A stretch of 46,166 nt of DNA from a virus. The stretch covers positions 1-46,166 of the IMG/VR virus record IMGVR_UViG_3300045741_000533; one strand, 5' to 3'. The position numbers and the translations under genes were made by a program. Below are positions 1,060-44,473 of the stretch, piece after piece (within the stretch, counting starts at the first letter, position 1; the number at the start of each line of letters is the position of its first letter). The notes under the pieces were generated by a model. That model searched no databases, was not told the DNA's origin, and saw only the letters and a list, made by a program, of their open reading frames with translations.

Positions 1060-2430
1060 TCAGGCCGCGACGGCTCCGCTGATGTTGACGTGGTGAATGG
1101 CGCCCGCGTACCGCGCCGTGAACGTGATCCCCGGCGTCAGCACGCGCGCCGCCCGGTTCGTGGAGCTGATGTTCGCGCTGGCCGGCGCCTCCACCGCCCA
1201 GGCCGGCGTCACGATCTGGCCCTGGTCATCCAGGAGCGGGGACAAGATCCCCGCAGACGCATCGCCGCTCAGCACGCCGCGCACCCGGTTGGCCAGCGCC
1301 TGGATGTCCGCGTCGGTGTACGCCACCTTGTCGACGCCCCGGTAGTGGTTCACCACCTCGACCTCGATCCGGGCCTGGAGCCAATCGATGTAGCGAATGG
1401 TATCGATCCACTCGCCGCTCGAGACCGTGCCCTGGTAGGTCGCCGAGACCGCATCCGACAGCGCGTAGTAGACGTTGCCGTACTTGCCGCCGGGCCCGTT
1501 GCCGGGGACGCCGACGATGTTCTGGAACTGCGTGGTGGTGAGCGCCGCGGGCGTGATGCCGGCGAGCTCCTTCCAGCTCCAGCTCTCCGTCCCCGGGGTG
1601 GCCGGCAGCATGCGCCCGACAAGGGCCGCGTCCTCGTACTGGGCGTCGTTGCTGTGCCAGATCGGCGCCGTGCGGGAGTAGGACCCCTGGCGAAGGAGCG
1701 CGAGCAGATCGGTTCCGACGGGAGAGTAAGCCACACTGGCGCTGTTCGCCTCGCTGGTCTGCGGGAAGAAGCCCTTGCGCCGTGACTGCGTCCACACCGC
1801 GCCCCGGCGGATGGTGTTCACGTCGCGCGAGGTCAGGAGCGTTGCCCACCACACCGCGCCCGCGTCCTCGAAGGCCGACAGGTCCTCCTCGATCCCGACG
1901 TTGGCGGTGGTCGTGGTGATCGTCAGGTTCGCGGTGCCGGTCAGGGCGAACGGGATCCCAGCGATGTCCGAGGTCACCAGCACGTCGTTTCCGCTGGCGC
2001 TGGCCGTGATGTACGCGGCCTGGGTGCTGCCGTTGAGCGCGGCAATGATGCCGTCCCGAATCTCAGCCACCGTCGCGGTGCCGTCCGAGGTGTACGTCCA
2101 CGCGACGCCGTTGATGGTGCCCGAGTACACGGTGGTGTTCGCGACGGTGGTCACGACGATGGTCATCACCATGGGCACCGGGGTCAGGCGCCGGCCGATG
2201 ACGAACGACTGCGGCCGCTTCTTCTGCGAAAGCAGCGCGGAAGCGCTGAGGTATTCCGGATCGGTGGCCAGGAAGCCGTCCGCCAGCATCCCCGCCAGGC
2301 TCGTGTAGACGCGGAAGCGCTCGACGAATCGGGTGTGCTGGCCAGCGATGAGGGGCACGCCAAAGCCAGCGGCGGTCAGCGGCGCCGGCGTGGAGGAGAT
2401 CGAGACGGAGACGAGATCGGAAACGGGCAT
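1060..2430 (-). CDS. Contractile tail sheath protein (DUF3383-like)
   Basis: This 456-residue protein begins MPVSDLVSVSISSTPAPLTA and contains an ITP(A/T)..T..Q..N-type segment followed by IDTIRYIDWLQARIEVEV, features I associate with the DUF3383 tail sheath family. A sheath makes the tail contractile. The ribosome site is GGAGG, six bases before the ATG. Residues about 91-178 form a Thr/Ala-rich inserted domain that closely resembles residues 41-131 of the capsid decoration protein at 5701-6495, and is probably a surface-exposed immunoglobulin-like or related beta domain. The C-terminus (ARVLTPGITFTARYAGAIHHVNISG) is the usual beta-strand end. Confidence 0.88.
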   Translation of the reverse strand: MPVSDLVSVSISSTPAPLTAAGFGVPLIAGQHTRFVERFRVYTSLAGMLADGFLATDPEYLSASALLSQKKRPQSFVIGRRLTPVPMVMTIVVTTVANTTVYSGTINGVAWTYTSDGTATVAEIRDGIIAALNGSTQAAYITASASGNDVLVTSDIAGIPFALTGTANLTITTTTANVGIEEDLSAFEDAGAVWWATLLTSRDVNTIRRGAVWTQSRRKGFFPQTSEANSASVAYSPVGTDLLALLRQGSYSRTAPIWHSNDAQYEDAALVGRMLPATPGTESWSWKELAGITPAALTTTQFQNIVGVPGNGPGGKYGNVYYALSDAVSATYQGTVSSGEWIDTIRYIDWLQARIEVEVVNHYRGVDKVAYTDADIQALANRVRGVLSGDASAGILSPLLDDQGQIVTPAWAVEAPASANISSTNRAARVLTPGITFTARYAGAIHHVNISGAVAA

Positions 2431-2432
2431 AG

Positions 2433-2981
2433 CTATCCTCCAAGGACGCCGGTGACCTCATCACCGGACGTGGTGATGGTCCCGAGCAAGAGATCGGGGT
2501 CCATCCAATCGGTCTGCGGGTTGTCGATGCGGACGCGCGCGCCCACGGCGAAGTCGATGACGGGCCGGGTCTCCCATTGAGCTCCAACCACGGCGTCCAC
2601 CTCCCGCGTCGCGAGGCGACGACGAACGGCCAGGCCGGCGGCATACAGCGCGTCGATCACGAGCTGGCTGTAGCGGCTCGCCTCCAGCGCCTGGATCTGC
2701 GGCTGGGAGTCGTCCGCCGACAGGAGCGTGATGGAGAGCGTCAACTCCGCGTCTCCCTCGATGCGCTCGATCAGCGAGGTGACGTTGTCCACCTGGGCCA
2801 CAGAGGGCCGCCCGATCGCCGTCGGGGGGGAGATGATGTCGAGGATCGCGTAGGGCAGCGCCGGGGCAGGCGCGCTCTGCTGAGACCAGATCACCGTCCA
2901 GCCAGAGCCCAGCACGCCGGAGACCCAGGCCCAGATCGCGGGGCGCATCGTCGAAACCCAGTCGGCGGGGAGGAACGGCAT
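2433..2981 (-). CDS. Neck/tail terminator protein
   Basis: This 182-residue protein sits between the head completion protein and the sheath. The start at 2981 overlaps the previous stop (TGATG), which is why an upstream in-frame Met was rejected. It has an N-terminal Trp-rich segment (WAWVSGVLGSGWTVIW) and a long central region with alternating strands. It resembles the neck or tail terminator proteins (LIC_12616-type) that cap the tail tube and join it to the head; that assignment rests on order and general look. Confidence 0.62.
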   Translation of the reverse strand: MPFLPADWVSTMRPAIWAWVSGVLGSGWTVIWSQQSAPAPALPYAILDIISPPTAIGRPSVAQVDNVTSLIERIEGDAELTLSITLLSADDSQPQIQALEASRYSQLVIDALYAAGLAVRRRLATREVDAVVGAQWETRPVIDFAVGARVRIDNPQTDWMDPDLLLGTITTSGDEVTGVLGG

Positions 2982-3355
2982 CAGCCCTCCACCCGCACCG
3001 CGAGGGCGCGCCAATAGCCGTAGCTGGACCAGTCCTCGACCCGAGCGAGCTCGAAGGTGACGCCCCGCCAGACCAGCCGATCCCGGTCCAGGCCGGCGGT
3101 GCGCTCGGAGACCTGGAAGGGCCCGGCGTCCCGCGGGAGGTACACCACGATCGCCTCCCGGGTCCGCTCACCCTCGGGGAGCTTCTGGATGTCGCGGCCC
3201 GAGGCCTGCTGTACGTTCGCCGCGTAGGTGGTGGTCGAGACGTTCGAGGACGGCACCCAGTCACCCGCGACGTAGGAGCCAGCACCGTTGCGGCGCACGA
3301 CGTCGACAACGTCCTGGGACAGGCCGATGACGGCAGCGGAGACGTCGACGCTCAC
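2981..3355 (-). CDS. Head completion/head-tail joining protein
   Basis: This 124-residue protein lies in the connector cluster between the gp10/gpG-like protein and the terminator. Its start overlaps the preceding stop (ATGA). The motif WRGVTFELARVEDWSSYGYWRALAVR is typical of small beta-barrel stopper or joining proteins that describe a column of the neck. The exact family is not recognised; function is inferred from position. Confidence 0.6.
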   Translation of the reverse strand: MSVDVSAAVIGLSQDVVDVVRRNGAGSYVAGDWVPSSNVSTTTYAANVQQASGRDIQKLPEGERTREAIVVYLPRDAGPFQVSERTAGLDRDRLVWRGVTFELARVEDWSSYGYWRALAVRVEG

Positions 3356-3933
3356 AGCGCGCCCTCCTCATCCGCCGCGGCGGCCATGTCGGTGACGACC
3401 TCGTGCATGACGGATCGGCGCATCTGCCCCGTGTCGATGAGAGGCCGGCTCGAGCCCTTGGCCTTGATGGTCTTCTCCGACAGCGGGACGAATGGGCCGT
3501 CGATCAGCTTCCGCTGAACCGCGCGCACGCCCACGAGCCCGAGGCGAGCGGCGGCCACCTCGGCCGTCATGGCGCCGTCGATGACCTTCTTGGTCAGCTC
3601 CTCGACCGCGGTTCCGATCTCCGACTGCGCTCCGTCGATGCCAGCCCGGAGGAACGAGCGCTGCGGGATGTTGGCCTCGGGGGCTCCGAACTCGTGGTGC
3701 GCGGCGATCTCGGCCACGCTCTGCGGTGCGCTGGATCCTTCGTGAGCAGCGCCCGCGGCAGGCTTCTTCTTCTTCAGGCCGGCCTTGGCCGCCCCCGTAC
3801 GGGGCTTGTGGTCCTTCGGCTTGTGGTCGCCCGCGGATCCGAGGATGCCGACCTTGACCCCGACGTTGTCCATGCGCTGGATCCGGTCGAGCGCCGAATC
3901 AAAGCCCAGGTCGATGTCCTCCACGCCGCTCAT
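3352..3933 (-). CDS. Virion morphogenesis/tail completion protein (HK97 gp10- or Mu gpG-like)
   Basis: This 193-residue protein has the landmarks of the gp10/gpG neck family: HHEFGAPEANIPQRSFLR around residues 80-96, a KKVIDGAMTAEVAAARLG helix, and the C-terminal SRPLIDTGQMRRSVMHEV. Members help join tail to head. The start at 3933 overlaps the previous stop (ATGA). A Lys/Gly/Ala-rich insertion (residues about 38-66) is longer than usual and probably flexible. Confidence 0.78.
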   Translation of the reverse strand: MSGVEDIDLGFDSALDRIQRMDNVGVKVGILGSAGDHKPKDHKPRTGAAKAGLKKKKPAAGAAHEGSSAPQSVAEIAAHHEFGAPEANIPQRSFLRAGIDGAQSEIGTAVEELTKKVIDGAMTAEVAAARLGLVGVRAVQRKLIDGPFVPLSEKTIKAKGSSRPLIDTGQMRRSVMHEVVTDMAAAADEEGAL

Positions 3934-4277
3934 GGCTGCATCGGCCCCAGGACCACGAGACGCCGAAGGGCCTCGTATTGGTCGAGGAAGCCGCTCCGAT
4001 ACGCCCCGCCAGCGCCCGAAGCGCCGCCGAAGGTCATCGAGACGCCGCCAGCGGACATCGAGTTGGCGCCGCTGACTGCGGCGTTCGAGGGCTTGGTGAG
4101 CGAGCGAAGGTGAGCGGCGAGGTAGAGGACGCCGTCGTCGTAGAGGGTGCCCCACGTGGTGGGGTCGCAGCGCCGCTGGGCCTCAGCGATGCACGCGTCG
4201 ATCGCCAAGCGCTCGTCCGCGGAGTCCGTGAAGACTCCCGGCAAGCGCTCGTAGATCATGTCCGCGGTCACCGTCAT
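3930..4277 (-). CDS. Head-tail adaptor (DUF4054-like)
   Basis: This 115-residue protein has an N-terminal helical part (FTDSADERLAIDACIAEAQRRC) with the WGTLYDDGVLYLAAHLRSL segment characteristic of DUF4054 adaptor proteins, then a Gly/Ser-rich loop and a C-terminal YRSGFLDQYEALRRLV helix. DUF4054 proteins bind under the portal and begin the neck. A GGAGG lies nine bases before the ATG. Confidence 0.78.
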   Translation of the reverse strand: MTVTADMIYERLPGVFTDSADERLAIDACIAEAQRRCDPTTWGTLYDDGVLYLAAHLRSLTKPSNAAVSGANSMSAGGVSMTFGGASGAGGAYRSGFLDQYEALRRLVVLGPMQP

Positions 4278-4296
4278 GAGAGGCCTCCTCCACGGC

Positions 4297-4683
4297 TCAG
4301 GCCGCGCTGACGCCGAAGTCGACGGGGTTTGAGGTCACGCCCTGAAGGCCGCGCCGAGGACGTGCCACCGGGAACTCCGGCAGCGCGTTGGCCGCACCCT
4401 TGGCGGTATCGACCGCCGCGGCCATCTCCTCTTGCTTGGCCCGCTCGAGCGCTTCCTTGGCCGCCGCAGAGTCCGCGGGGACCAGCGTGTCGAAGATGGC
4501 CTTCGCCGCCGGGTTCTTGTCGACGAGGCGCAGGAACTCCGCGTCCGCCTCGCACTTCTGGAGCGGAGCGATGTCGAGCCGGATGACCTCCTTGCTCTCG
4601 CCGCCCACCGCCACCTTGATGTGCTTGGTTCGCGGCTCCGTGTTCATCAGGAGCCGCGGCTTGGTGTTCTTCTCGTCTGCCAT
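4297..4683 (-). CDS. Hypothetical virion-region protein
   Basis: This 128-residue protein follows the major capsid gene directly. It has a short beta N-terminus (KHIKVAVGGESKEVIRLDIAPLQKCEADAEFL), an Ala/Glu-rich helical centre and a low-complexity end with GLQGVTSNPVDFG. I do not recognise it. Its place between capsid and adaptor suggests a minor head or head-closure role, or a chaperone. Confidence 0.6.
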   Translation of the reverse strand: MADEKNTKPRLLMNTEPRTKHIKVAVGGESKEVIRLDIAPLQKCEADAEFLRLVDKNPAAKAIFDTLVPADSAAAKEALERAKQEEMAAAVDTAKGAANALPEFPVARPRRGLQGVTSNPVDFGVSAA

Positions 4684-4684
4684 G

Positions 4685-5656
4685 TCAGATCCCGTCCCTG
4701 TAGCTCATGGCGATCGGCACCTTGACGTTGGTGCCGCCGGTGCGGCCGCGCGCGATGTTCTTGACCTCGAGGTCGACGAACTGGGGCGGCAAGACCTCGA
4801 AGGCGATGGCCACCGCCTGCTCGAGAACCGTGGGGTCCTTCTTGTAGCAGAGCATGCGGTTGGTCGCCCCGACGCCAGCGCCCGAGCACTCCAGGATCGG
4901 CTCGACGGTGGTGATCACCTTCTGAGACCTCAGGAAGAACTCGAGGATCGTGGTGTCGCTGACCGTGCTGACCCGGCTCGAGCTGATCAGCCCGTACAGG
5001 TCCACCGGGATCGCGATGGTGTCCGGCACGAAGACCTTCTTCGTCAGCGTCCAGATGTCGATCCAGATGTCGTTGAGGTCGAAGATCACGCGGTCCGGGT
5101 TGCTCACGGCGTTGGTCGCCCAGCTGCCATAGGTCGCGTTTCCGACGGGCACGTTGGCGTTGTTGAGCAGGCCGGTCATGCTCACGCTGGCGTCGCCGAT
5201 CATGGCCACCTGGTTGCGGAAGGAGTCGATGCCCTGCCGGGTGGCCATGGCGTATTCGGCGTTGAGCGGGACTCCAGCCATGGCGGCCGCGTCGATCTCG
5301 TCCTGCGAGTAGACGTAGGAAAGCGCCATCGAGCGCACCGGGAAGGTGAACCGACGACGGGTCGCGTTGACCCGCGCGATGTCCTGGCCGTTGGAGCCGA
5401 CCCACTTGGCCATGCCGTAGTGGGTGATCCGGTCGTAGCCGGACTCCTGGGCGCCGCGTGCGATGTTGCGGATCGGGATCAGCCGATCGGCATCGAGCGG
5501 CGCGAAGGGGGTTCGGTACGCCTGGGCCTCGATGTCCTGCAGCTCGCGCTGGAGGAACAGGCTGGGCGCCGAGTCCTTGCGCCAGCCAAAGACGGCCTCG
5601 GCCTGGGCGGCGATCTGCTGGGCGCGGTCGGTGCGATAGATCTTCTCGTTGCGCAT
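4685..5656 (-). CDS. Major capsid protein (DUF2184/HK97-fold)
   Basis: This 323-residue protein has the length and signatures of the encapsulin-like DUF2184 capsid family: LFLQRELQDIEAQAYRTPFAPLDADRLIPI at the N-terminus, ITHYGMAKWVGSNGQDI, VYSQDEIDAAAMAGVPLNAEYAMATRQGI and LEFFLRSQKVITTVEPI. It would form the icosahedral shell. The ribosome site GGAGACCAGAAG-ATG is almost the same as that of the decoration protein upstream. No separate delta domain is evident at the N-terminus; scaffolding is probably the C-terminal part of the protease gene. Confidence 0.88.
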   Translation of the reverse strand: MRNEKIYRTDRAQQIAAQAEAVFGWRKDSAPSLFLQRELQDIEAQAYRTPFAPLDADRLIPIRNIARGAQESGYDRITHYGMAKWVGSNGQDIARVNATRRRFTFPVRSMALSYVYSQDEIDAAAMAGVPLNAEYAMATRQGIDSFRNQVAMIGDASVSMTGLLNNANVPVGNATYGSWATNAVSNPDRVIFDLNDIWIDIWTLTKKVFVPDTIAIPVDLYGLISSSRVSTVSDTTILEFFLRSQKVITTVEPILECSGAGVGATNRMLCYKKDPTVLEQAVAIAFEVLPPQFVDLEVKNIARGRTGGTNVKVPIAMSYRDGI

Positions 5657-5700
5657 CTTCTGGTCTCCTTCGGCTTCCTTTGCTTGGGCCGAGTCAGCCG

Positions 5701-6495
5701 TTAGGGGATGTCGATCGCGAGCTCGGCGAGCCCGTTGACCGTGGTGGAGCGCCAGCGAGCGTTGGTCACCTGCGTGGCGTTGCCGGAGTCGGCGGTGTTC
5801 CGGAACATGCCGAGGCGGGTCTGTGCGCCGTTGGCCGCGTGCCGGAAGTACACGCTGTCGCCAGGGGCGCAGGTCACCTCGGTGGGCACCAGGATGACGC
5901 CGGAGTGCAGCACCGGGAGGTACTGACCCGAGACGTACTGGGCCTGGCTCAGGGCGCCGACGCGCTCATCGTAGGCCGGGATCTGAGCGAAGACGGCCAC
6001 GCCTTCGAACTGTTGCGAGGCGCCGGTGGGCAGCATGCACGCCTTGTCGGCGCCGGTGTCTCGGACGACCGCGAAGCCCGGGAGGATGATCGACTCGTTG
6101 GAGTGCGCGGTGGTGGTGACCATCGCCAGGTTGGAGTCGGACTCTACGACGGTGATCGCGCCCAGCGACGGGTCGCGCTCGGTGATCACCAGGGTGTTGG
6201 AGACGTTCGCCGCGGTCACCAGCGCGTTGGTGAACTGGTTGGCCTGGATCGCCGCCACGAAGGCGTCAGCAATCTCCGCCGTGGTCGCGCTCGCATCCGA
6301 GGTCACCGAGATCGGGATGCCGTTGATCGACAGCGTGTAGGTCGTCGAGTTCACGGCGGTGATCGTGGTCGTGTAGACCGCGGCCACGTTCGTGCGGCGG
6401 TTGAGCATGCTCTTCAGCTTGTTGTAGTTCGGGCCGCCGATGAGCTGGCCGGCCACTCCGGCGCTGGGGTACTGGTCGATCGAAAGCAGGGTCAT
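5701..6495 (-). CDS. Capsid decoration/cement-like structural protein
   Basis: This 264-residue protein lies between the protease/scaffold and major capsid genes, the usual place for a cement protein. Its last third (ALSQAQYVSGQYLPVLHSGVI, APGDSVYFRH, ARWRSTTVNGLAELAI) is typical of phage structural cement proteins. Residues 41-131 form an inserted Thr-rich beta domain shared with the tail sheath (sheath residues 91-178). It has a strong ribosome site, GGAGACCAGACC-ATG, matching the capsid gene's. Confidence 0.75.
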   Translation of the reverse strand: MTLLSIDQYPSAGVAGQLIGGPNYNKLKSMLNRRTNVAAVYTTTITAVNSTTYTLSINGIPISVTSDASATTAEIADAFVAAIQANQFTNALVTAANVSNTLVITERDPSLGAITVVESDSNLAMVTTTAHSNESIILPGFAVVRDTGADKACMLPTGASQQFEGVAVFAQIPAYDERVGALSQAQYVSGQYLPVLHSGVILVPTEVTCAPGDSVYFRHAANGAQTRLGMFRNTADSGNATQVTNARWRSTTVNGLAELAIDIP

Positions 6496-6527
6496 GGTCT
6501 GGTCTCCTTCGTTCCTTGGGCTCGGGC

Positions 6528-7049
6528 TCAGGCCTTGGCCGGCTTCCAGGCGTTCTTGACGGCGGCATCGTGCTCGGCGCGCGCGGCGGCCACCGGATCG
6601 TCGGCGTCCTCGCGGCTCTCGCTTCCGCCCTTGGCCCCGGCGGCCAGGCGTGCCGCAGCATCCGCGGAGTCGACGCGCTGGGCGGTGGCCATGTCGTAGG
6701 CGGCGCCGATGTACTCGCTCGACTTGCCGTCGAGGCGGACGGTGGGGGCGAGCTTGGCGACGACACGTCGCTTGATCTCGTCGGAGTCGAGGCGCTGGAG
6801 GTCCTCCACCTTCTCGCTCAGGACCTTCGCGGCCTCGGTGGCGAGCGCGGCCTTGGCGGTTGCGGCCTTCTCGGTCTCCACCGCGTCGAGGCGCTTCGAG
6901 AGCTCGGCCTTCTGGCTCTCCACGACGGCCAGCTTGGCCTGAGCCTTCTCGAGCTCGCCCGCGTCCGTGCGCGTCTTGGTGAGCGCTGCGAACTCCGCCG
7001 CAACGGCCTCGGGGACATCGAATTCGGCGGCGCCGATCTTGATCTTCAT
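6528..7049 (-). CDS. Possible nested scaffold protein (internal start)
   Basis: Within the protease-scaffold gene, ATG at 7049 (MKIKIGAAEFDVPEAV) follows GGAG by nine bases and sits exactly at the boundary between the protease and coiled-coil regions. The product, 173 residues, would be the free scaffold, as lambda Nu3 is made from inside gene C. This is inference from position and spacing. Confidence 0.4.
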   Translation of the reverse strand: MKIKIGAAEFDVPEAVAAEFAALTKTRTDAGELEKAQAKLAVVESQKAELSKRLDAVETEKAATAKAALATEAAKVLSEKVEDLQRLDSDEIKRRVVAKLAPTVRLDGKSSEYIGAAYDMATAQRVDSADAAARLAAGAKGGSESREDADDPVAAARAEHDAAVKNAWKPAKA

Positions 7050-7652
7050 GGTGTTGCTCTCCTGGTCGGGGTCGGTGGCGTTGCCTGCCGAGTCGAGGCG
7101 GATCGAAGCCGACGCGCCCGCCCGGGCGGCCCGCACGATCGCGAGGTGGTTCACGGTGATGTCGCGCTGATAGAAGTCCGCGCGGTAGGACTGGCCCTTC
7201 GGCCCAAGCACGCCATCGGTGTCGACGTGCACGCCGCCGGGGACGGCCTCGAGGCGGATGTCATAGCCGGGGCTAAGCTGGCGCTCGCCCCGGTCGACTG
7301 CCCGGATGGTGTCCGCGTCGAAGATCGAGAGCATTCCGCTGACGTGCTGGCCGTCGTCGGCGCGGGTGGCGGAGCCGACCATCCCCACCGTCAGGCCCTT
7401 GGCGTTCTCGGCGGTGACGCGGTCGGACGGATGGTCTCGGGTGATCGGCTTCAGCGCATAGGTCTCGAGCGAGGCCGGGGCGAAGACGTCCTCAGGGAGG
7501 CGCAGCTCGCGCCGCACGCTGCCGTCGGGGTTGATGTACTCGAGGACTCCAGTGCGGGTCAGGTTCGCGGGGGCGACAAGGAAGCCTTCGTCGGTGCGGC
7601 GAGAGCGCCCGATTGGGGCGCGGTCGTAGCGGCGAACCTTCACGGGGCCCAT
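6528..7652 (-). CDS. Prohead protease-scaffold fusion (DUF2213)
   Basis: This 374-residue protein has two parts. Residues 1-195 resemble DUF2213 proteases: FLVAPANLTRTGVLEY, PEDVFAPASLETYALKPITRDHP, and VNHLAIVRAARAG, which carries the family's NHLA histidine. Residues 202-374 are Ala/Glu/Lys-rich coiled coil, as expected for scaffolding. The protease would mature the prohead and remove the scaffold. An internal ATG at 7049 has its own ribosome site. The gene begins 23 bases after a copy of the 14-nt motif and just after a CCCCGCGCGGGG palindrome. Confidence 0.82.
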   Translation of the reverse strand: MGPVKVRRYDRAPIGRSRRTDEGFLVAPANLTRTGVLEYINPDGSVRRELRLPEDVFAPASLETYALKPITRDHPSDRVTAENAKGLTVGMVGSATRADDGQHVSGMLSIFDADTIRAVDRGERQLSPGYDIRLEAVPGGVHVDTDGVLGPKGQSYRADFYQRDITVNHLAIVRAARAGASASIRLDSAGNATDPDQESNTMKIKIGAAEFDVPEAVAAEFAALTKTRTDAGELEKAQAKLAVVESQKAELSKRLDAVETEKAATAKAALATEAAKVLSEKVEDLQRLDSDEIKRRVVAKLAPTVRLDGKSSEYIGAAYDMATAQRVDSADAAARLAAGAKGGSESREDADDPVAAARAEHDAAVKNAWKPAKA

Positions 7653-7690: not shown

Positions 7691-9016
7691 GAAGGGGACC
7701 TCATCGTCCTCGGGAGCGGTGATGGTGGGCGTCTCGGCGTCGGGCTGGTCAGGCTCTGGGCTCGGCCCGTCGAAGCCCGGACGCTGATCGACCTCTTCGA
7801 TGATCGGTTCCGCGATGCACCTGCACAGGATGGCCTCGCCCGGGTTCCCGCCGGCCGGGGGATCGTCGAAGCTGTAGGTCTTGCCTTCGCGGTCCCAGTG
7901 CGAGGGCCTGGCCTTCGGATACTTGCCCTCCGGATTGCCGCGCACACGTTCGTCGAGCGCCGTCCTCCAGATGTACTTGGTGACGCCCGCGTCCTCCATG
8001 CGGCGCTTGGTGACCGCCGCCCCGAGCTTGCCGACCTGGTCCCGAGCGATGAGCCCGGCCCGCCGGCGCGCGATGCCGAGCTCGGACTCGGTGCCGTCCT
8101 CGAGGAAGCTCTTGGTCAAGTCCGCTTGCACCTCCTCCCAGCGGAGGCCGCGCTTGTAGGCGTCCGTCAGCTGGTCCTCGAGGGCGCCGTAGTAGCGATC
8201 GGGGATCGACTTGATCAGTACAACGCTCTCGTTTGCCGCGGCGGCCAGCGTCTCGTGAAGCCAGGGCTCTCGCATGAAGGGGTCGACCCCGAGCGAATAC
8301 TGAACCGCGTTCCGGCTGAAGCGGTCGACGTCGTGCACCGCGGCGCCGACGGCCTGAGCGATGTCCCGAGCGCTCGTCGCCTCCTCAAAGCCCTGAGCAG
8401 CTTCGTCGGCGATCTTGGCGAACCAGTCCTTTTCTGCAGCGGTCAGTTGTTCCCGCATCACGTCGGCTGGGAGCCGGAGCGTCTCGAGGCCTGGCACCTC
8501 CCGAAGCACCTCGATCGTTTTGGCTACCTTCGGGTCGCTCCACGACTTCACGTTGCGGGTCAGGCGCTCGAAGGCATCGAGCAGCCCCGACACCCGCTTG
8601 TCGCCCTCCAGCGAAAGCTCCCGATTGACCGAGTCGAGTTCTCCGCCGGTGTAGACGGGGCGCGGACCGCGGTGCTTGGGGTTGGTCTCCCGCCACCGGC
8701 GAAAGGCCGCGTCCGCCGCGCCGAAGTCCTTCGGGATGTCCAGCCCGGCCTCGTCGAGCAGCTTCCTGAGCGCCTCCTCCTTCGATCCGAACTTGTGGTC
8801 CTCACGCCATCCAGGTGCGCTGTCGCGGCGCTGGCGCCACCAGGCCTCGAGCTTGGGCATCGCCCGCCGCACCTGCGCGGAGAGCGGCGACAGGAGGACG
8901 AGGATCCGCCGCCTGAACTTCGCCTCAACCTGGACCGGGAATTGGGGGCGACGGTGGAGGTGGTGGAGCTGGGCGATCCCGGGCACCAGCCGCTTGAGCG
9001 TCGACGCGCGACGCAA
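7688..9016 (-). CDS. Head morphogenesis protein (Mu F/SPP1 gp7-like)
   Basis: This 442-residue minor head protein follows the portal. The C-terminal half carries the family's pattern: LIARDQVGKLGAAVTKRRMEDAG, the YIWRTALDERVR segment, and EAILCRCIAEPIIEE. Such proteins sit inside the prohead, bind the portal and help DNA ejection or assembly. The start is TTG at 9016, chosen because a GGGAG lies eight bases upstream and no ATG occurs for over 50 codons. Its stop is inside the 14-nt motif. Confidence 0.82.
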   Translation of the reverse strand: MRRASTLKRLVPGIAQLHHLHRRPQFPVQVEAKFRRRILVLLSPLSAQVRRAMPKLEAWWRQRRDSAPGWREDHKFGSKEEALRKLLDEAGLDIPKDFGAADAAFRRWRETNPKHRGPRPVYTGGELDSVNRELSLEGDKRVSGLLDAFERLTRNVKSWSDPKVAKTIEVLREVPGLETLRLPADVMREQLTAAEKDWFAKIADEAAQGFEEATSARDIAQAVGAAVHDVDRFSRNAVQYSLGVDPFMREPWLHETLAAAANESVVLIKSIPDRYYGALEDQLTDAYKRGLRWEEVQADLTKSFLEDGTESELGIARRRAGLIARDQVGKLGAAVTKRRMEDAGVTKYIWRTALDERVRGNPEGKYPKARPSHWDREGKTYSFDDPPAGGNPGEAILCRCIAEPIIEEVDQRPGFDGPSPEPDQPDAETPTITAPEDDEVPF

Positions 9017-9019
9017 GGG

Positions 9020-10774
9020 CTACTCTCCCGGCTTCGGTGGAGGGGTAGGCTGTGGAGGCGGACCGCCAGCGGGAGGCGGTGGCGGCGTAGGCTTCGGCGC
9101 CGAGAACCCAGCGCCGACCGAACCCATGATCGCCGCCGCCTCTGCGTCGCTGAAGCGGTAGAACACCTTCAGCATGCCGAGCCCGGCGTCCCTCGGCAGA
9201 TCGCCCGCCGCGACGGCTTTGACGATCTCCACGCCGGCCGCGACCTGAGCGCCGTTCGGCAAGGTGTCTTGCACCTTCTCCGTCGGCGGGGGTTGGCCAG
9301 ACGCTGCCGGCGCCGTCGGCGATGCGCTCTGGCCTGGTGAGGGCGGCGCTGCAGGAGCCTTGACCATCGTCGGCATGGCCTCCGGCGGGATGTCTCCGAG
9401 CCCATCGTCGAGCGCGGTGGGGTCGAGGTCGTAGACGCACTCGTCGTCTTTGAGGAGGCGGGTGCGCGCCTCGGCCGGGCTGATGACGTTGGACGTCACC
9501 AGGATCGCGTCGGTCTGCGCATCCTGGTTCCGCGTCTTGCTCTCGGACTCTTCGTTGGGCTCCTCGAGCGAGCAGAAGCGGAGCTTCCAGCGATCGGGCA
9601 CCACGCCCTTCGTCGGCCCGTCGCTCGAGATGAGGAGGAGATCGATCAGCCGGTTGAGCGGGTCGCGCAGCTTGCGCTCCTGGATCGCGCCCACGCGCTT
9701 CCTCCAGTTGGCCTTGCCGCTCTCGTCGTCGGTGGAGAGGCCGCCCGGCGCATGCCCGAAGAGCAGCGTCAGGGGCATCTGCGCGGCGGCAGCGACCTCC
9801 TCCATGGCCTGCCCCAGAATCGTCGCGACGCCCTGGTAGCTGACGGCCTTCTCGTCGATGCGGTCCTTGGCGTCGATGGGCGCGACGCGGAGGGTTGAGC
9901 GGTACTTCTGGAAGGTCTGGAGCCGCTTCCGGATGAGGTCCTCGCCCTCCTTCCCGCGTGAGGCCAGGAGGTCGGTCAGGCCCTCGATCGCGAGGTAGGT
10001 CTGCGAGAACTTCCCGATGGTGGTTTGGATGTAGTCCCACAGCTCGGTGAAGCGCAGCACCGGGGTGGCGACGCGATCCACCATGCTCTCGCCCCAGCCC
10101 CCGCGGCGCCGCCGCGTGTCGTCGCTGGCGACGATGCCGAAGCTCGCCAGAATGCGATCGGCGTGAACCTCGACCACCCGGCCGCTCGCGTAGTTCGTGA
10201 TCGAATAGGTCTCGGGCCGGCCGTAGTGGGGCGAAGCGTAGTCGCCGACGTCAGGCCCTGGGCGCACGAGGCGGTTGTCCACGAGCACGAGCCCGCGCAC
10301 GCCGCGCACCCCGCCGCGGTTGATCGGCTTCTCGAGCGGCTGGCCGTCGTCCACCAGCATCAGGCAGCACGCCCCGCCGTCCTTCAGGTCGCGCCGCAGG
10401 AAGTCCGAAAAGACCTCCTGAGCCTTCAGGCCCTCGAGCGCATCGAGCACCATCTTGGGCCAATCGTCATCGAGCCCGCCGGGGTTCGCAGCGTCCTCGG
10501 CCTCTGTCTCACCATCGCCGCCATCGCCGCCGAGCTCGATCCACGCCGAGGTCGCTTCGTCGGCCGGCTTGTCGATGATGGTCGCGATCAGGTGGTTGGT
10601 GACGTACAGCTCGTCCCGCTGCTCCCATCCCTGGCGGTTCTTGTAGACGACCTTGGTGGCGAGGCGTGGATCGACGTCGGTGCCTAGGCCGGTCAGGACG
10701 TTGGAGAGGCTGTCGCTACGGGCTGGAGGGGCCGGCGGGGCGGGCTTGATGGATCGGAGACGTGCCTTGCCCAC
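9020..10774 (-). CDS. Portal protein (DUF1073-like)
   Basis: This 584-residue protein starts LRSIKPAP, then SDSLSNVLTGLGTDVD and ELYVTNHLIATIIDKPADEATSAW, the signature of the DUF1073 portal family (the Pfam entry was later renamed after Acb1, but this protein is a portal by size and position). It forms the dodecameric DNA channel at one capsid vertex. LMLVDDGQPLEKPI and AAAQMPLTLLFGHAPGGLSTD are further landmarks. The C-terminus is Pro-rich and probably disordered. The start is GTG; it lies 31 bases after copy 2 of the 14-nt motif and 12 bases after a perfect six-bp hairpin, and has no strong nearby ribosome site. Confidence 0.88.
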   Translation of the reverse strand: MGKARLRSIKPAPPAPPARSDSLSNVLTGLGTDVDPRLATKVVYKNRQGWEQRDELYVTNHLIATIIDKPADEATSAWIELGGDGGDGETEAEDAANPGGLDDDWPKMVLDALEGLKAQEVFSDFLRRDLKDGGACCLMLVDDGQPLEKPINRGGVRGVRGLVLVDNRLVRPGPDVGDYASPHYGRPETYSITNYASGRVVEVHADRILASFGIVASDDTRRRRGGWGESMVDRVATPVLRFTELWDYIQTTIGKFSQTYLAIEGLTDLLASRGKEGEDLIRKRLQTFQKYRSTLRVAPIDAKDRIDEKAVSYQGVATILGQAMEEVAAAAQMPLTLLFGHAPGGLSTDDESGKANWRKRVGAIQERKLRDPLNRLIDLLLISSDGPTKGVVPDRWKLRFCSLEEPNEESESKTRNQDAQTDAILVTSNVISPAEARTRLLKDDECVYDLDPTALDDGLGDIPPEAMPTMVKAPAAPPSPGQSASPTAPAASGQPPPTEKVQDTLPNGAQVAAGVEIVKAVAAGDLPRDAGLGMLKVFYRFSDAEAAAIMGSVGAGFSAPKPTPPPPPAGGPPPQPTPPPKPGE

Positions 10775-38041: not shown

Positions 38042-38968
38042 TCAGCTCGCTTCCATCCAGACCCCGGCGGCAGGGTCGTTGTCGAATTCAGCCCACGGGC
38101 CGCGGCCCGGATCGTCGATCCAGCCGAAGAGGGTCACGCTGGGGCGGTTGTGGAGGAGGATGAATCGGACGCCAGCGGGAACGGCGCGGCGCAAGATCTC
38201 GGCGTTGGCGTAGCCATCGGCGTTCGAGATCCCGGCCGCCTCCATCACCACCGCGGCGGGGAAGTGCTCGTCGTGGTCGATGGTGGCGCCGGTCCCGGCC
38301 GTCAGGGTCTGGAGTACGGCGATCAGCTCATCGGGACGGCCGTGGGAGCCCTTCGCAAGCGCGGCCCCGTGGAGGCGGATTGCGTAGGCGGCATCCGTGA
38401 GCCCGTCGCGGTCGAGTTGCAGCACTTCGCCGATGCGATCCAGCTGGGCGCCGTACGCCGTGTCGAGGCCTCGATAGGCGCCGACGTTCGCCAGCGCCTG
38501 GTCGACGTCCTGCATCCGGTCGCCGAAGACGCACAGGATAGACTCCATCCCCGCTTGACCGCGGTACTGCGAGACGAGCCGTCCGATCGCCAGGGCGCAG
38601 TGATCGGGGATCGCTCCGGCAGCCGGGAGCACGTCGAGGCTGGCGGTGTGGGGTGTGCCGATGACGTTGCCCGCGAGGTCGGTCACGGAGGCCACGGAAA
38701 TCGTGTAGGCCCCGACCCCAAGCGACAGGTCTAGGTTGACGGAGACGTCGACCACGGCGCTGTCCGTCGCGCTGGGCGTCACCACCAGCAGCGTGCGCGC
38801 GACAGAGCCACCGTTCGGGGTCAGCGTGTAGTTGCCGACGGTCCGCAGGGCGGTGCTGTCCAGCATCGCCTCGGAGAACGTCAGGCGGATGGTCCGGCGA
38901 TCGATGGCCACCGCGGAGAGCAGCGTGGGCGCCACGCCAAAGCCTGTGAAAGATCCGACGAGAGGCAT
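38042..38968 (-). CDS. Ig-like plus baseplate wedge/tail-I-like protein
   Basis: This 308-residue protein has an N-terminal SwmB/Big-type Ig-like domain (TIRLTFSEAMLDSTALRTVGNYTLTPN, residues about 15-100) and a C-terminal part (GAQLDRIGEVLQLDRDGLTDAAYAIRLHGAALAKGSHGRPDELIAVLQTL) typical of P2 gpI or DUF2612-like baseplate/fibre-attachment proteins. It probably links fibres to the baseplate. Confidence 0.65.
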   Translation of the reverse strand: MPLVGSFTGFGVAPTLLSAVAIDRRTIRLTFSEAMLDSTALRTVGNYTLTPNGGSVARTLLVVTPSATDSAVVDVSVNLDLSLGVGAYTISVASVTDLAGNVIGTPHTASLDVLPAAGAIPDHCALAIGRLVSQYRGQAGMESILCVFGDRMQDVDQALANVGAYRGLDTAYGAQLDRIGEVLQLDRDGLTDAAYAIRLHGAALAKGSHGRPDELIAVLQTLTAGTGATIDHDEHFPAAVVMEAAGISNADGYANAEILRRAVPAGVRFILLHNRPSVTLFGWIDDPGRGPWAEFDNDPAAGVWMEAS

Positions 38969-39294
38969 CAGGGAACCTCCACGCCGTAGATCGTGGCGGT
39001 GTACACGAAGGGACCTTGCTCTTCGGTCGTCAGCGTCACCGTGGTGACCGTCTCGCCCGCAGGCGCGGCCACCGCCAGTACCGGCAGCGCGGGGCTCAGC
39101 ACCCAGTCGCCGGGATAGAGGAGCGCCGGGGTCCGCAGCACCTCGCGGTTGAAGTCACAGCGGATATGCGTCGCGTCGATCCGCGTCAGCGTCACGCCGA
39201 TGGTGACCTGGTTGGTCGGCAGCCAAAGCCGCACGTCCCCTTCGGGGGCGCCCACCTGGTAGCGGTTGTTCTGGACGAGGTACAGCGACGGCAT
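38968..39294 (-). CDS. Small Ig-like structural protein
   Basis: This 108-residue protein resembles the N-terminal domain of the next gene (IDATHIRCDFNREVLRTPALLYPGDWVLSP against IDRRTIRLTFSEAMLDSTALRTVGNYTLTP), so it is likely a separate Ig-like domain of the same family. It shares the ATG with the previous stop region. Virion accessory. Confidence 0.55.
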   Translation of the reverse strand: MPSLYLVQNNRYQVGAPEGDVRLWLPTNQVTIGVTLTRIDATHIRCDFNREVLRTPALLYPGDWVLSPALPVLAVAAPAGETVTTVTLTTEEQGPFVYTATIYGVEVP

Positions 39295-39301
39295 GGGTCA
39301 C

Positions 39302-40285
39302 CTAGAGGAAGGAGCCCGAAGCTCTGGTCACCGGCATCAGGACGTCGCCAGCGCACCTGAGGATTTGCGTGTCCGTGTCGGTGCTGTCGCGGTCGTTGAA
39401 GGCCACTGCCGTTGGGCAGCCGCGGATGTCTGAGATCCGGCCAAAATACCGGGCGGTGGAGGTAGCGCCGTTGTTGAATAAATCGATGTCGAATCCGATA
39501 AGGTACCCGATCGCGCCTTCGTAACCCAAGGTCCAGTTCGTGGCCGACCAGCCATTGCACTGCAACGTAAGACTCACCGATGCGGTGGCGCTTCCGTCTG
39601 CGATCCACCCTCGCCAGTTGGCGGCGCCACCCAAGATATTCGACGCGAAGGCTGCCGCTGCCGAGTTGGCGAAATAGAGACAGGCGGTACAGGTGCTCAG
39701 CGCGGACGACTCTGCGTTGATCCACAGGACGGTTGAAAAGTTTGCTGTGGCCGAGTCCTTCAGCGCGATCATGACGTCCCCAGCGCTGGTCCTCCACGTC
39801 GAGAAATAGGCCGTCGTCGCGGTCGCCCACGGGATGAAGTTCACCGCGGTGCGGCTCAGCTCGCCCGTCGGACCCGTGGGGCGGTTCGACAACGGCGTAC
39901 CGTTCAGCGTGTACGCGCCCCAGCCAGCGTAGACGTCGATCGTCTGCGGGGTGGTGTCGGCGTTGCTGTTGTTCGCGACGACGCATATCCGCAGCTGGCC
40001 TGCGGTGACGTTGTTGAACGGACTGCCATAGCCGCTCGGGGCGCGCACCACGAAGTATGCGAGCACCTGGCTGCCGTTGGTGCCGTAGACGAAGTTTGCG
40101 GCCGTCGTCAGGTTGTTCGAGCTGTTCGCGGTGACGCTGTTGCAGCTAAGTTCGAGCGTCCAGCCCGCGGCCAAAAAGAGCTGGAGGAGCGCATAGAGGC
40201 TCTCGCGATATTGGACGGCCTGGTCGACGTTGGAGCTGTAGGTCTGGTTGATGTTGTCGGTCCAGGTCTTGACCATCGTCGTCAT
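39302..40285 (-). CDS. Virion protein, unassigned (fibre-like)
   Basis: This 327-residue protein starts MTTMVKTWTDNINQTYSS after GAGGAA nine bases upstream. It has many Asn/Thr/Gly and Tyr (YAGWGAYTLNGTPLSNRPTGPTGE), typical of tail or baseplate adhesin proteins, and two C-x2-C Cys (TCTAC). Just after gpJ. No family recognised. Confidence 0.5.
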   Translation of the reverse strand: MTTMVKTWTDNINQTYSSNVDQAVQYRESLYALLQLFLAAGWTLELSCNSVTANSSNNLTTAANFVYGTNGSQVLAYFVVRAPSGYGSPFNNVTAGQLRICVVANNSNADTTPQTIDVYAGWGAYTLNGTPLSNRPTGPTGELSRTAVNFIPWATATTAYFSTWRTSAGDVMIALKDSATANFSTVLWINAESSALSTCTACLYFANSAAAAFASNILGGAANWRGWIADGSATASVSLTLQCNGWSATNWTLGYEGAIGYLIGFDIDLFNNGATSTARYFGRISDIRGCPTAVAFNDRDSTDTDTQILRCAGDVLMPVTRASGSFL

Positions 40286-40295
40286 GGCGGCTTCC

Positions 40296-41447
40296 TCAAA
40301 CCGTCGCGACGACGGTGACGGTGATGCGGCTCGAGTCGAGCGCGGCGATCTCGCGCGGCCCGATCACCACCGGCGTGGTCAGGCTCGGGCTTGCAGCGCG
40401 GCCGAGGAGCAGCGTGATGTTGGAGATCCCGGCCGTCTCGACGCCCTGGAGGAGCTTCCACCCGACGATGTCCAGATCCGTCACGATCTGCGCCTCGTAG
40501 GCCAGGAGCTCGGCGGCCACAAGCGCGGTCCCATTCGCGGGGAAGGCGGCGTCCGCGGTGATCTGCGCCGTCAGCCAGATGTTGACCGAGGCCGGGCGCG
40601 TGAAGCGGACGCTGACGCTGTGCCCCAGCGCGTCGGTCGTCGCCTGGGTCGTCGTGCCGTAGGTCTCGATCCCGTCGGGCTTGAGGTCCCAGATGGTGGC
40701 GGCGATCTCCGCGTCGGCACCGCCGACCACGATCACCTCGAAGCTATGAGGAGGCCGCCCATCTGCGTCGGTGAAGTCGAGGACGTTCTGCGTCACCTTC
40801 ACCTCGGTGACGCCGTCGATGAGCGCGATCGCCTTCCGCAGCGCGTCAGCGACGTTCGAGACGGAGATCTGGGAGCGGCGGATCCGCGCGCGGAGGGCGG
40901 CGTCCGACTCGATGGCGCGGCCCAAGTTGGCGTCGAGCGCGTTGGTGGTGGAACTCCAGCCCGTCACCGGGGTGACGATTTCCCAGGTGGAGCCCGCCAG
41001 CGCCTGGACCGGGCCCGTGTCCTCGGCCGTCGCAAGGACGTCGACCGTGCCACCGCCGCCGATCGTGGCCCCGGGCAGCGTGAAGCGGGAAAGCTGGTCA
41101 GCCAGGCGAATCACCCGGCCCGCCGCGAGGACCGTTCCAGGCGTTCCGTGGATGGTCACCGTGACGGTGGAGCTCGATGCGGGGATCCGGCTCAGGCCCG
41201 TCAGCGCCGCGCGTTCGTCGAGCGCCGCCCCGGTGGCTGACACCACGTTGCCCGCGCCGTAGATGGCCTCTGCCTGTTCCCAGAGCGAGGCCTCCCGCTC
41301 GGCCATGATGCCAATCAGCTGGGCGTCCGGGGACTCGCTGGAGAGGTCGACGTTGTCCCCAAACTCAGAGCGCCAGCGCGCCTCGAGCTCGGTCCGGATC
41401 TCGTCCAATCGCTTGGGCACGAAGCCGCCTGCGGTAAGACCCGTCAC
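40296..41447 (-). CDS. Baseplate J-like wedge protein
   Basis: This 383-residue protein has the gpJ hallmarks: DEIRTELEARWRSEFGDNVDLSSESPDAQLIGIMAEREASLWEQAEAIY, AALTGLSRIPASSSTVTVTIHGTPGTVLAAGRVIRL, and LRKAIALIDGVTEVKVTQN. It is the wedge of the contractile baseplate. GTG at 41447 is the start; an upstream open frame has no homology look. The GTG lies in the 3' stem of a seven-bp hairpin following motif copy 4. Confidence 0.82.
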   Translation of the reverse strand: MTGLTAGGFVPKRLDEIRTELEARWRSEFGDNVDLSSESPDAQLIGIMAEREASLWEQAEAIYGAGNVVSATGAALDERAALTGLSRIPASSSTVTVTIHGTPGTVLAAGRVIRLADQLSRFTLPGATIGGGGTVDVLATAEDTGPVQALAGSTWEIVTPVTGWSSTTNALDANLGRAIESDAALRARIRRSQISVSNVADALRKAIALIDGVTEVKVTQNVLDFTDADGRPPHSFEVIVVGGADAEIAATIWDLKPDGIETYGTTTQATTDALGHSVSVRFTRPASVNIWLTAQITADAAFPANGTALVAAELLAYEAQIVTDLDIVGWKLLQGVETAGISNITLLLGRAASPSLTTPVVIGPREIAALDSSRITVTVVATV

Positions 41448-41479
41448 GGGGTGAGCGTCGGCCCCGTGAATGCATCGAA

Positions 41480-41494
41480 CAACGGGCCTCTTTA
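41480..41494 (-). repeat. 14-nt motif, copy 4 (before gpJ)
   Basis: TAAAGAGGCCCGTTG, containing the stop codon of the gp25-like gene. After 11 bases a CACGGGG ... CCCCGTG hairpin (41468-41445) follows; its 3' arm contains the gpJ start codon. Confidence 0.85.
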
Positions 41495-41842
41495 GCGGGT
41501 GGGCTGCAGGGTGAAGGAGACGACCTCGCCGCCGTTGACCTGGAATTCCACCCTGAGGACGCGCGTCCGCTGGTTGACGATGACGTCCAGCCGATCGAGC
41601 GACGTCACGCCCTCGACCGCCCGGATCTCCTCGCTGAAGAGCTGGCGCAGGTGCGGCACGTTCGTCTTCTGCCCAACGACCTGATCGATGTACGGCACGC
41701 CGTCGGCCTTGTTGAGGAACCACTCGCCTCGGAGAAGCCGCAGCCGACACGCGATGCGCTGGGCGGTGGAGTCGATGCGCTGGAGACGCCCGTTGACGCG
41801 GGCAAGGTCCCCGCCGGCGGTCAGCTGAAATGCGGTGGTCAT
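41492..41842 (-). CDS. Baseplate gp25/gpW-like protein
   Basis: This 116-residue protein has QRIACRLRLLRGEWFLNKADGVPYIDQVVG and VEGVTSLDRLDVIVNQRTRVLRVEFQV, the pattern of DUF2634/gp25-like baseplate wedge proteins with lysozyme-like ancestry. Start overlaps the spike's stop (ATGA). Confidence 0.75.
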   Translation of the reverse strand: MTTAFQLTAGGDLARVNGRLQRIDSTAQRIACRLRLLRGEWFLNKADGVPYIDQVVGQKTNVPHLRQLFSEEIRAVEGVTSLDRLDVIVNQRTRVLRVEFQVNGGEVVSFTLQPTR

Positions 41843-42531
41843 ATGGCCTTCACCTTCGCGGAGCTGGACGTGATCTTGCCTTCGATCGGATCGGTGAATG
41901 GGGGCTGGAAGGTGGCGGCCAGCGCGCCGGCCAGCGCCGCGTAGAAGCCAGGGGCGGTGGAGGGTGAGATCTCGACGGTGTCTCCCTCGCGCGCGACCCC
42001 AGCATCCGCGTCGGGTCCGAGCAGAATGGTGCCGTCGGGCTTGAGCCGCACCTCGCTCGAAGCATCCTCCCGCCCGATGACCAGGTCCTCGGTGCCGATG
42101 TCCGGGATCGCGCTCTCGTAGGGCGCCATGCCGGCGAGGACGACGGAGTCCGAGAGGTCGTGCTTGCGCGGGTCACCGGGCGCCACCGCCGCGCCCGAGC
42201 CCGATAGCCATCGGTCCAGCGAGCGCTCGCCGACGAAGAGGAGCACGAGGTCCCCGGCCTTCAGCGGCCAGGTGATGCGCCAGCCTCCGCCGCGCGGGTA
42301 GACGACTGGGGCCTTGGTCACCTGTGGATAGTCGATGATCTTCGGGTCCTCGCCCGGGAGCCGGATGGTGCGCCTGAGCAGAGGCTGGACGTCCGCGCTC
42401 TGTGACTCAGGATAGAAGGCCACCACCTTCCCCGGGAGCACGGTGTGGACGTCCGCCAGGCGGTTCTCGAGCCACACCGTCAGCGCGTCGAGGAGGCTCG
42501 GATCCGGCTGGTCTGCGATGGCACCGGTCAT
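41839..42531 (-). CDS. Baseplate spike (gp138-like, OB-fold)
   Basis: This 230-residue protein starts at 42531 in an ATGA overlap. LPGKVVAFYPESQSADVQPLLRR is the characteristic Gp138 N-terminal OB-like region, then GGGWRITWPLKAGDLVLLFVGERSLDRWL and VRLKPDGTILLGPDADAGVAREGDTVEI, which starts the beta-helix spike. It makes the tip that pierces the envelope. Confidence 0.82.
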   Translation of the reverse strand: MTGAIADQPDPSLLDALTVWLENRLADVHTVLPGKVVAFYPESQSADVQPLLRRTIRLPGEDPKIIDYPQVTKAPVVYPRGGGWRITWPLKAGDLVLLFVGERSLDRWLSGSGAAVAPGDPRKHDLSDSVVLAGMAPYESAIPDIGTEDLVIGREDASSEVRLKPDGTILLGPDADAGVAREGDTVEISPSTAPGFYAALAGALAATFQPPFTDPIEGKITSSSAKVKAI

Positions 42532-43502: not shown

Positions 43503-43828
43503 GCGGCGGCGACCTCCTCCGCCGTAACGTAGAGCAGCGACACGCGGGTGCCCAAATCCTCGTACCCGGGATCTAGGCCCTGGGCGCTGGAGTCGAAGGC
43601 GATGAAGTCCCCGGCGGGGAAGTCATCCCTCTTGCCGAAGCGCTCGAGCAGCGGCGTGTCCGCGACCAGCCGGAGGCCTCCCGCGAGCAGGTTGGACGCG
43701 GCGTCGTAGAGATCCATGGACCATGCCTGCGCGCGCGAGTTCCACCGCAGCTCGAGGGTGAATAGGACGCCATCGAGCGAGAGGGTCTGGGAGGACGCGA
43801 AGCCGCTTGGGATCTGGATCTGCAGCAT
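43499..43828 (-). CDS. Baseplate plug protein (DUF6983-like)
   Basis: This 109-residue protein has DGVLFTLELRWNSRAQAWSMDLYDAASNLLAGGLRLVADTPLL, the DUF6983 pattern of phage baseplate plug proteins that close the tube at the baseplate. GAGG six bases before the ATG. It overlaps the hub gene. Confidence 0.8.
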   Translation of the reverse strand: MLQIQIPSGFASSQTLSLDGVLFTLELRWNSRAQAWSMDLYDAASNLLAGGLRLVADTPLLERFGKRDDFPAGDFIAFDSSAQGLDPGYEDLGTRVSLLYVTAEEVAAA

Positions 43829-43831
43829 GGT

Positions 43832-44470: not shown

Positions 44471-44473
44471 GGC

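What the first reader, a model, noticed from the sequence alone, without database searches (positions are those of the whole stretch)
1060..6495. Same inserted domain in the capsid decoration protein and tail sheath
Decoration protein residues 41-131 and sheath residues 91-178 share TSDxxATxAEIxD, an ING turn, a VTA/ITA strand and a final NLxxxTTTA. A surface domain moved between head and tail genes in one genome would be unusual.
Basis: seen in the sequence. Interest (0 to 1): 0.7.

Follow-up and report, generated by a model that had tools for sequence, protein, structure and literature searches.

The report
Shared surface domain, head and tail

Summary
Cement residues about 39-131 (PF22758) and sheath residues about 87-178 (DUF3383) are homologous: alignment score 122, reached by 0 of 5000 shuffles of each of three kinds; a sheath-only profile built without the window's own sheath still finds the cement at E=3.7e-15; AlphaFold2 gives the same order of strands and helices in both.

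The domain is already known as a fold: the lateral domain of phage tail sheaths, also in podovirus nozzles, some auxiliary capsid proteins, FliD and flagellin (PMC12846349). It is not peculiar to this genome. In viral contigs it also occurs in baseplate J proteins, neck terminators and cements at three loops; contig L100 has four copies in cement, terminator and sheath. Relatives have it in sheath only (most), both, cement only, or neither. One cement carries two CBM5/12 carbohydrate-binding modules instead.

A recent copy from this genome's own sheath into its cement is not supported (own sheath ranks 7th of 108), but neither is it rejected.

Most likely it is a promiscuous accessory surface domain; adhesion or stabilisation is inferred, not shown. 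New here, as far as I could find, are its repeated insertion in structural cement proteins and the head-neck-tail sharing within one genome.

The parts
5701..6495 (-). structural cement (capsid decoration) protein, 264 aa, with inserted domain
   Evidence: PF22758 E=3e-17, phrog_563 E=4e-19; directly upstream of the MCP gene; core aligns to XM1 gp53 (Z 11.7), Pam3 cement (Z 9.9), E217 5-fold vertex decorating protein (Z 8.7)
6103..6381 (-). inserted domain of the cement protein (residues about 39-131)
   Evidence: profile E=6e-15; AF2 pLDDT about 85-97 with E39-45 E52-57 E60-65 H72-85 H87-92 E93-98 E101-106 E116-118 E123-129; Z 15.5, rmsd 1.3 over 94 residues to the A-1(L) sheath
6382..6495 (-). 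N-terminal arm of the cement before the insert (residues 1-38; low model confidence)
   Evidence: matches the N-terminus of insert-free cements by eye; pLDDT under 50 for residues 1-21
5704..6102 (-). cement core after the insert (residues 132-264)
   Evidence: phmmer to insert-free cements: L038 3e-14, L058 7e-12, L003 1e-10
1060..2430 (-). contractile tail sheath protein, 456 aa, DUF3383 type
   Evidence: PF11863 E=2e-17, phrog_205 E=1e-80; AF2 mean pLDDT 88, Z 30-36 to the Sf14, PhiTE and Bas63 sheaths
1897..2172 (-). lateral (additional) domain of the sheath (residues about 87-178)
   Evidence: E87-93 E101-106 E109-114 H121-133 H136-139 E141-146 E149-154 E163-165 E169-175, same order and near-same spacing as the cement insert
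4685..5656 (-). major capsid protein (context)
   Evidence: PF09950 E=3e-52
40296..41750 (-). baseplate wedge (J-like) protein; without the domain in this genome, although many relatives have it here
   Evidence: phrog_6 E=8e-54; no hit of the domain profile

Best explanation
The shared segment is one homologous accessory domain of about 90 residues (seven strands plus a helix, FliD/flagellin-like fold) set into a loop of two virion proteins. In the sheath it is the usual lateral domain of DUF3383-type sheaths. In the cement it is an acquired insert between the N-terminal arm and the first core strand. [Shown by sequence, profiles, models and comparison with relatives.] The domain belongs to a pool that has been put many times into surface loops of virion proteins (sheath, baseplate J, neck terminator, cement), by recombination within or between phage genomes. 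[Recurrence is shown; the recombination route is inferred.] Because each virion carries the sheath and the cement in many copies, the domain would coat both head and tail. It most likely gives weak, multivalent contacts: adhesion to cell-surface or environmental glycans first, extra subunit contacts second. [Inferred, from published hypotheses on sheath additional domains and from a relative whose cement carries carbohydrate-binding modules in its insert loops.]
For: Homology. Fold: matching AF2 elements. The cement model's best PDB matches at residues about 36-131 are sheath lateral domains: A-1(L) Z 15.5, PhiTE 13.3, Sf14 12.3, Bas63 11.8, Mu 11.5, Milano 10.8; then a Bas63 wedge 11.7, nozzles of P-SCSP1u, Kp7 and T7 10-11, flagellins 9-10, crAss001 capsid 9.8, Patience 8.2, FliD about 7. 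One BFVD protein, G9BWH5, matches both models (E=2e-11 with the cement, 2e-7 with the sheath). A domain profile finds solved sheaths (9zdk_S 8e-18, 21vm_B 4e-8, 8fop_T, 8kee_A) and 9zd7_0/9zdk gp88, found together with sheath gp76 in entry 9zdk, plus 9ndy_H 'wedge protein 2'. Recurrence: cements of about 15 distinct contigs, about 25-35 baseplate J proteins, 6 terminator-like proteins. Insert acquired: most cements are 150-175 aa without it, including MW202816, the nearest sequenced phage found, whose sheath has it. Loops are permissive: the L076 cement has two CBM_5_12 modules (E=4e-13). Adhesion, stability and horizontal exchange were proposed for additional sheath domains (PMC9230969).
Against: No functional evidence exists here. 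Exposure of the insert on the capsid was not modelled; only monomers were predicted. The published precedents are mixed: in A-1(L) a wedge insertion domain holds a tail fibre (PMC10966104), and in crAss001 the FliD-like domain of the auxiliary protein packs on the major capsid protein (PMC10172136); both point to structural roles.
Confidence: 0.68

Rival explanations
1. The insert is chiefly a stabilising clamp: in the cement it adds contacts between neighbouring capsomers, in the sheath between neighbouring subunits, and binding to cells plays no part.
For: Published proposals that additional sheath domains stabilise the sheath (phage 812, cited in PMC9230969); the crAss001 FliD-like domain contacts the major capsid protein (PMC10172136); cement proteins are stabilisers by trade.
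Against: Close relatives assemble with bare 150-175 aa cements and with domain-free sheaths. The same cement loops hold quite different inserts, including CBM5/12, in others. The sheath lateral domain does not take part directly in contraction (PMC12846349).
Confidence: 0.3
2. Recent transfer inside this genome: the cement insert was copied from this phage's own sheath gene.
For: Cement copies as a group rank their own sheath somewhat better than chance (mean rank fraction 0.37, p about 0.04, 14 copies); own sheath is close to best for L043 (rank 3 of 108; 48% identity by BLAST) and L013 (rank 5, 60%); the own-pair clade is not rejected for the window (p-AU 0.365).
Against: For the window copy the own sheath ranks 7th of 108 (38% identity) and sheaths of other phages score higher (L019 146 against 125); the maximum-likelihood tree does not pair them and the cement copies scatter among sheath domains (5 changes for 5 rows). 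The alignment is too short to decide.
Confidence: 0.15
3. Chance or compositional resemblance of Thr/Ala-rich beta structure, with no common origin.
For: Both segments are rich in Thr, Ala, Ser and Val.
Against: 0 of 5000 in three shuffle tests, reversed sequence at background; profile E about 1e-15 without the window's sheath, against 0.019 for shuffled proteins; identical order of model elements.
Confidence: 0.01

Closest known systems
Lateral (additional) domain of type 2 phage tail sheaths, also in nozzles, auxiliary capsid proteins, FliD and flagellin, as described for Pseudomonas phage Adele (PMC12846349)
   Same: Same place in the sheath, seven strands plus a helix, same set of structural neighbours (9khy, 8i4m, 7qof, 8giu, 6iwy) found here independently
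   Different: That text does not name structural cement (PF22758) or neck terminator proteins as carriers, nor compare copies within one genome by sequence
crAss001 auxiliary capsid protein, FliD-like (FD) domain (PMC10172136; 7qof)
   Same: Fold (Z 9.8, rmsd 2.1 over 99 residues) on a capsid surface protein
   Different: Different carrier protein (with a PH-like domain, not PF22758); the authors called it unique to crassviruses
XM1 sheath insertion domain (InD), FliD D3-like (PMC10457771)
   Same: Domain inserted in a sheath, FliD-like; XM1 also has the same cement family (gp53)
   Different: The authors held it unique to XM1 and perhaps taken from the host; XM1 gp53 (160 aa) carries no such insert
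Ig-like accessory domains exchanged among phage structural proteins (as cited in PMC9230969)
   Same: Promiscuous surface accessory domains on heads and tails, weak carbohydrate binding proposed
   Different: The present domain contains an alpha helix and matches FliD/flagellin-like folds, and no Ig family of Pfam above its cut-off
Insertion domain of baseplate wedge gp31 of A-1(L) (PMC10966104)
   Same: An extra domain of about 100 residues inserted in a wedge protein
   Different: Its identity with the present domain was not tested; it holds a tail fibre

Membership tests
Structural cement protein (PF22758, E217 gp24 / Pam3 gp6) | Curated Pfam score and core fold | tested here: met
   63.5 bits against cut-off 27; core residues 128-264 align to XM1 gp53 Z 11.7 and Pam3 cement Z 9.9
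Structural cement protein (PF22758, E217 gp24 / Pam3 gp6) | Gene next to the major capsid protein gene | tested here: met
   45 bases upstream of the PF09950 gene
Structural cement protein (PF22758, E217 gp24 / Pam3 gp6) | Trimer on the capsid surface at three-fold positions | not testable with these tools
   known for XM1 gp53 (PMC10457771); only monomers were predicted here
DUF3383-type contractile tail sheath (PF11863) | Curated Pfam score and sheath fold over the whole length | tested here: met
   63.5 bits against 34.9; Z 35.9 to the Sf14 sheath over 397 residues
FliD/flagellin-like lateral domain of sheaths | Seven-stranded beta sandwich flanked by a helix | tested here: met
   cement insert Z 15.5, rmsd 1.3 over 94 residues to the A-1(L) sheath domain; model elements
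FliD/flagellin-like lateral domain of sheaths | Sequence homology to solved members | tested here: met
   profile A11, which includes both window copies, hits 9zdk_S 8e-18, 21vm_B 4e-8, 8fop_T 2e-4, 8kee_A 2e-3
FliD/flagellin-like lateral domain of sheaths | Exposed on the outside of the virion | not testable with these tools
   no assembly modelled
Flagellin hook IN motif (PF07196) | Curated Pfam score | tested here: inconclusive
   1 of 39 members at E=0.018, a weak match only; the fold is similar to FliD and FliC
Ig-like domains (Big_2, Big_6, fn3) | Curated Pfam score of an Ig family | tested here: inconclusive
   only chance-level matches, E 0.04-0.08, in 1-2 of 39 members

The most novel reading that the evidence does not exclude
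A single accessory domain acts as a shared 'coat' of the whole particle: phages of this group plant the same module, as a mobile unit, in head cement, neck terminator, sheath and baseplate proteins of the same virion (up to four copies in three proteins in L100), so that head, neck and tail all present one kind of surface. The structural cement protein is a general display platform whose three loops take this module or carbohydrate-binding modules.
Probability: 0.35. Interest if true: 0.6.

Novelty: new variant of a known kind. Interest (0 to 1): 0.42.

Why it matters
It places structural cement proteins (PF22758) among the carriers of a widespread FliD/flagellin-like virion domain, and shows by sequence, not only by fold, that head, neck and tail genes draw on one domain pool. 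The cement loops that accept it, and that accept carbohydrate-binding modules in a relative, are natural candidate sites for display on phage heads. It makes a direct test possible: whether such domains help adsorption or stability, by removing the insert from one protein, the other, or both in a laboratory phage. The module appears to have no Pfam entry of its own.

Tried and rejected
Chance or composition: rejected by shuffles, reversal and profile controls. Own-genome copy as sole origin: not supported, not rejected; the tree has 95 columns for 83 rows and 35 open forks. Single origin of all cement inserts: the tree needs 5 changes for 5 rows, but a single clade is not rejected (p-AU 0.14), and insertion at three different loops argues against it. 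Single-protein scans for close relatives of either window protein in viral contigs, and of the cement in bacterial contigs, found none. tblastn with the bare domain in the phage collection found nothing (low-complexity filtering may hide it). Alignments A1, A3 and A12 were too diverse to scan with. Pfam and PHROGs have no family for the domain alone; single copies match phrog_165/205 (sheaths) and phrog_33525, phrog_29986 and phrog_13532 of unknown function. Exposure on the capsid could not be tested. The paper on PhiTE (PMC11972413) is not held.
Full report
WHAT WAS CLAIMED. A decoration protein (window 5701-6495, minus) and a tail sheath (1060-2430, minus) were said to share an inserted domain, at residues 41-131 and 91-178.

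OBSERVATION. Both genes are real and well typed: the sheath is PF11863/DUF3383 and phrog_205; the decoration protein is PF22758 'structural cement protein (E217 gp24/Pam3 gp6)' and phrog_563, directly upstream of the PF09950 major capsid gene. The Pfam cement match covers only residues 119-261, so the first part of the protein is extra. Smith-Waterman of the two segments gives 122; residue, dipeptide and local shuffles average 41-47 and none of 5000 each reaches it. tblastn of the cement against the window's own record finds only itself and the sheath segment (E=7.5e-11, 37% over 103 residues). A profile of sheath domains from about 90 phages finds the window cement at 6e-15, and at 4e-15 when the window's sheath is left out; shuffled proteins reach only 0.019.

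STRUCTURE. AlphaFold2 models used alignments of window and contig proteins only. Cement: mean pLDDT 80, insert 85-97. Sheath: mean 88. The insert has strands 39-45, 52-57, 60-65, helices 72-85 and 87-92, strands 93-98, 101-106, 116-118, 123-129. The sheath segment has strands 87-93, 101-106, 109-114, helices 121-133 and 136-139, strands 141-146, 149-154, 163-165, 169-175. Caveat: the cement alignment contained sheath-domain rows, so the two models are not fully independent. Foldseek and VIA-align place the cement insert on sheath lateral domains first (A-1(L) Z 15.5, rmsd 1.3 over 94 residues; PhiTE, Sf14, Bas63, Mu, Milano), then wedge, nozzle, flagellin, crAss001 capsid, Patience minor capsid and FliD. 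The rest of the cement matches XM1 gp53, Pam3 and E217 decoration proteins. One BFVD protein, G9BWH5 (276 aa), matches nearly the whole cement model (E=2e-11) and also the sheath model's domain (2e-7), so the cement-plus-domain layout probably exists in at least one catalogued phage.

RELATIVES. Eighty viral contigs were fetched with a sheath alignment and eighty more with a domain alignment. Of 42 distinct loci of the first group with both genes, 34 have the domain in the sheath only, 4 in both (window, L013, L043, L063) and 4 in neither. The second group, biased towards the domain, adds 6 with both and 3 with the cement only (L097, L111, L127). Cements without an insert are mostly 150-175 aa; inserted ones are 237-265 aa (one copy), 359-389 aa (two copies), or longer. 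Three insertion places are seen: between N-terminal arm and first core strand (window, L043, L097, L152, first copy of L063, L098, L100, L102, L154); after the following 'LP' segment (second copy of L063, L098, L100, L102, L154); and in the loop before the last strands (L013, L150, L165) (places assigned by eye and by residue number). The domain also sits in baseplate J proteins at residues about 135-225 (PF04865) and in neck terminators (PF23961: L015, L148, L100). L100 holds four copies in cement (two), terminator and sheath; L165 holds three in three proteins. The window's own baseplate J protein lacks it.

OTHER INSERTS. The L076 cement has two CBM_5_12 modules (E=4e-13), the second in the loop that holds the present domain in L013; L028 and L032 have other inserts near that loop. 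The cement protein thus looks like a platform whose loops accept accessory domains.

ORIGIN. In a tree of 83 copies (95 columns; many forks unresolved) the cement copies fall in five separate places among sheath domains, while baseplate copies are mostly grouped together. The own sheath is not the nearest for the window copy (7th of 108). AU tests do not reject own-genome pairing or a single cement clade (p 0.14-0.43). GC content of insert and core is similar in both genes (0.656/0.697 and 0.663/0.693), so there is no sign of very recent foreign origin.

LITERATURE. PMC12846349 describes this lateral sheath domain (seven-stranded sandwich with a helix) and lists nozzles, auxiliary capsid proteins (7qof, 8giu), FliD and flagellin as other carriers. 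PMC10457771 found a FliD-like insertion domain in the XM1 sheath and proposed host origin. PMC10172136 found the FliD-like fold in a crassvirus auxiliary capsid protein. PMC9230969 discusses additional sheath domains, mostly called Ig-like, with adhesion or stability as possible roles and horizontal exchange. I found no text that names PF22758 cement or neck terminator proteins as carriers; the library holds open-licence papers only, so this is weak evidence of novelty.

MECHANISM. Shown: homology, fold, recurrence, permissive loops. Inferred: surface exposure, recombination between structural genes, and function. I favour weak multivalent adhesion, by analogy with CBM inserts in the same loops and with published proposals, over pure stabilisation; the two are not exclusive.

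VERDICT. Real, well above chance, and explained by a known promiscuous domain; the cement-protein location and the within-genome spread are the new part.

Noticed in passing
L076:2518-3477: Cement protein of another viral contig carries two carbohydrate-binding modules of family 5/12 inserted in its loops (Pfam E=4e-13).
   Followed up: partly
L100:4881-5960, 8902-9666, 9676-10270: One contig with four copies of the domain in three virion proteins: cement (two), neck terminator, sheath.
   Followed up: partly
L165:2066-2854, 5370-6260, 6263-7567: Three copies in cement, terminator-like protein and sheath of one contig.
   Followed up: partly
L028:3713-4489; L074:911-1552; L079:1758-2120: A divergent variant starting TFDAD(L/F)... 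sits in a cement (L028) and in a small neck-region protein (L074, L079); the sheaths of the same contigs are not hit by the domain profile.
   Followed up: no
L139:1782-4853: A 1023 aa protein with tail-fibre and appendage matches also carries the domain at residues 152-231.
   Followed up: no
L033:4445-5020: ORF with collagen-like G-x-y repeats directly upstream of the major capsid gene.
   Followed up: no
window 38042-46009 and 159-650: Tape measure and baseplate genes lie at the far end of the window on the same strand as the head and sheath genes at its start, so the contig looks like a circularly permuted, perhaps near-complete, genome.
   Followed up: no
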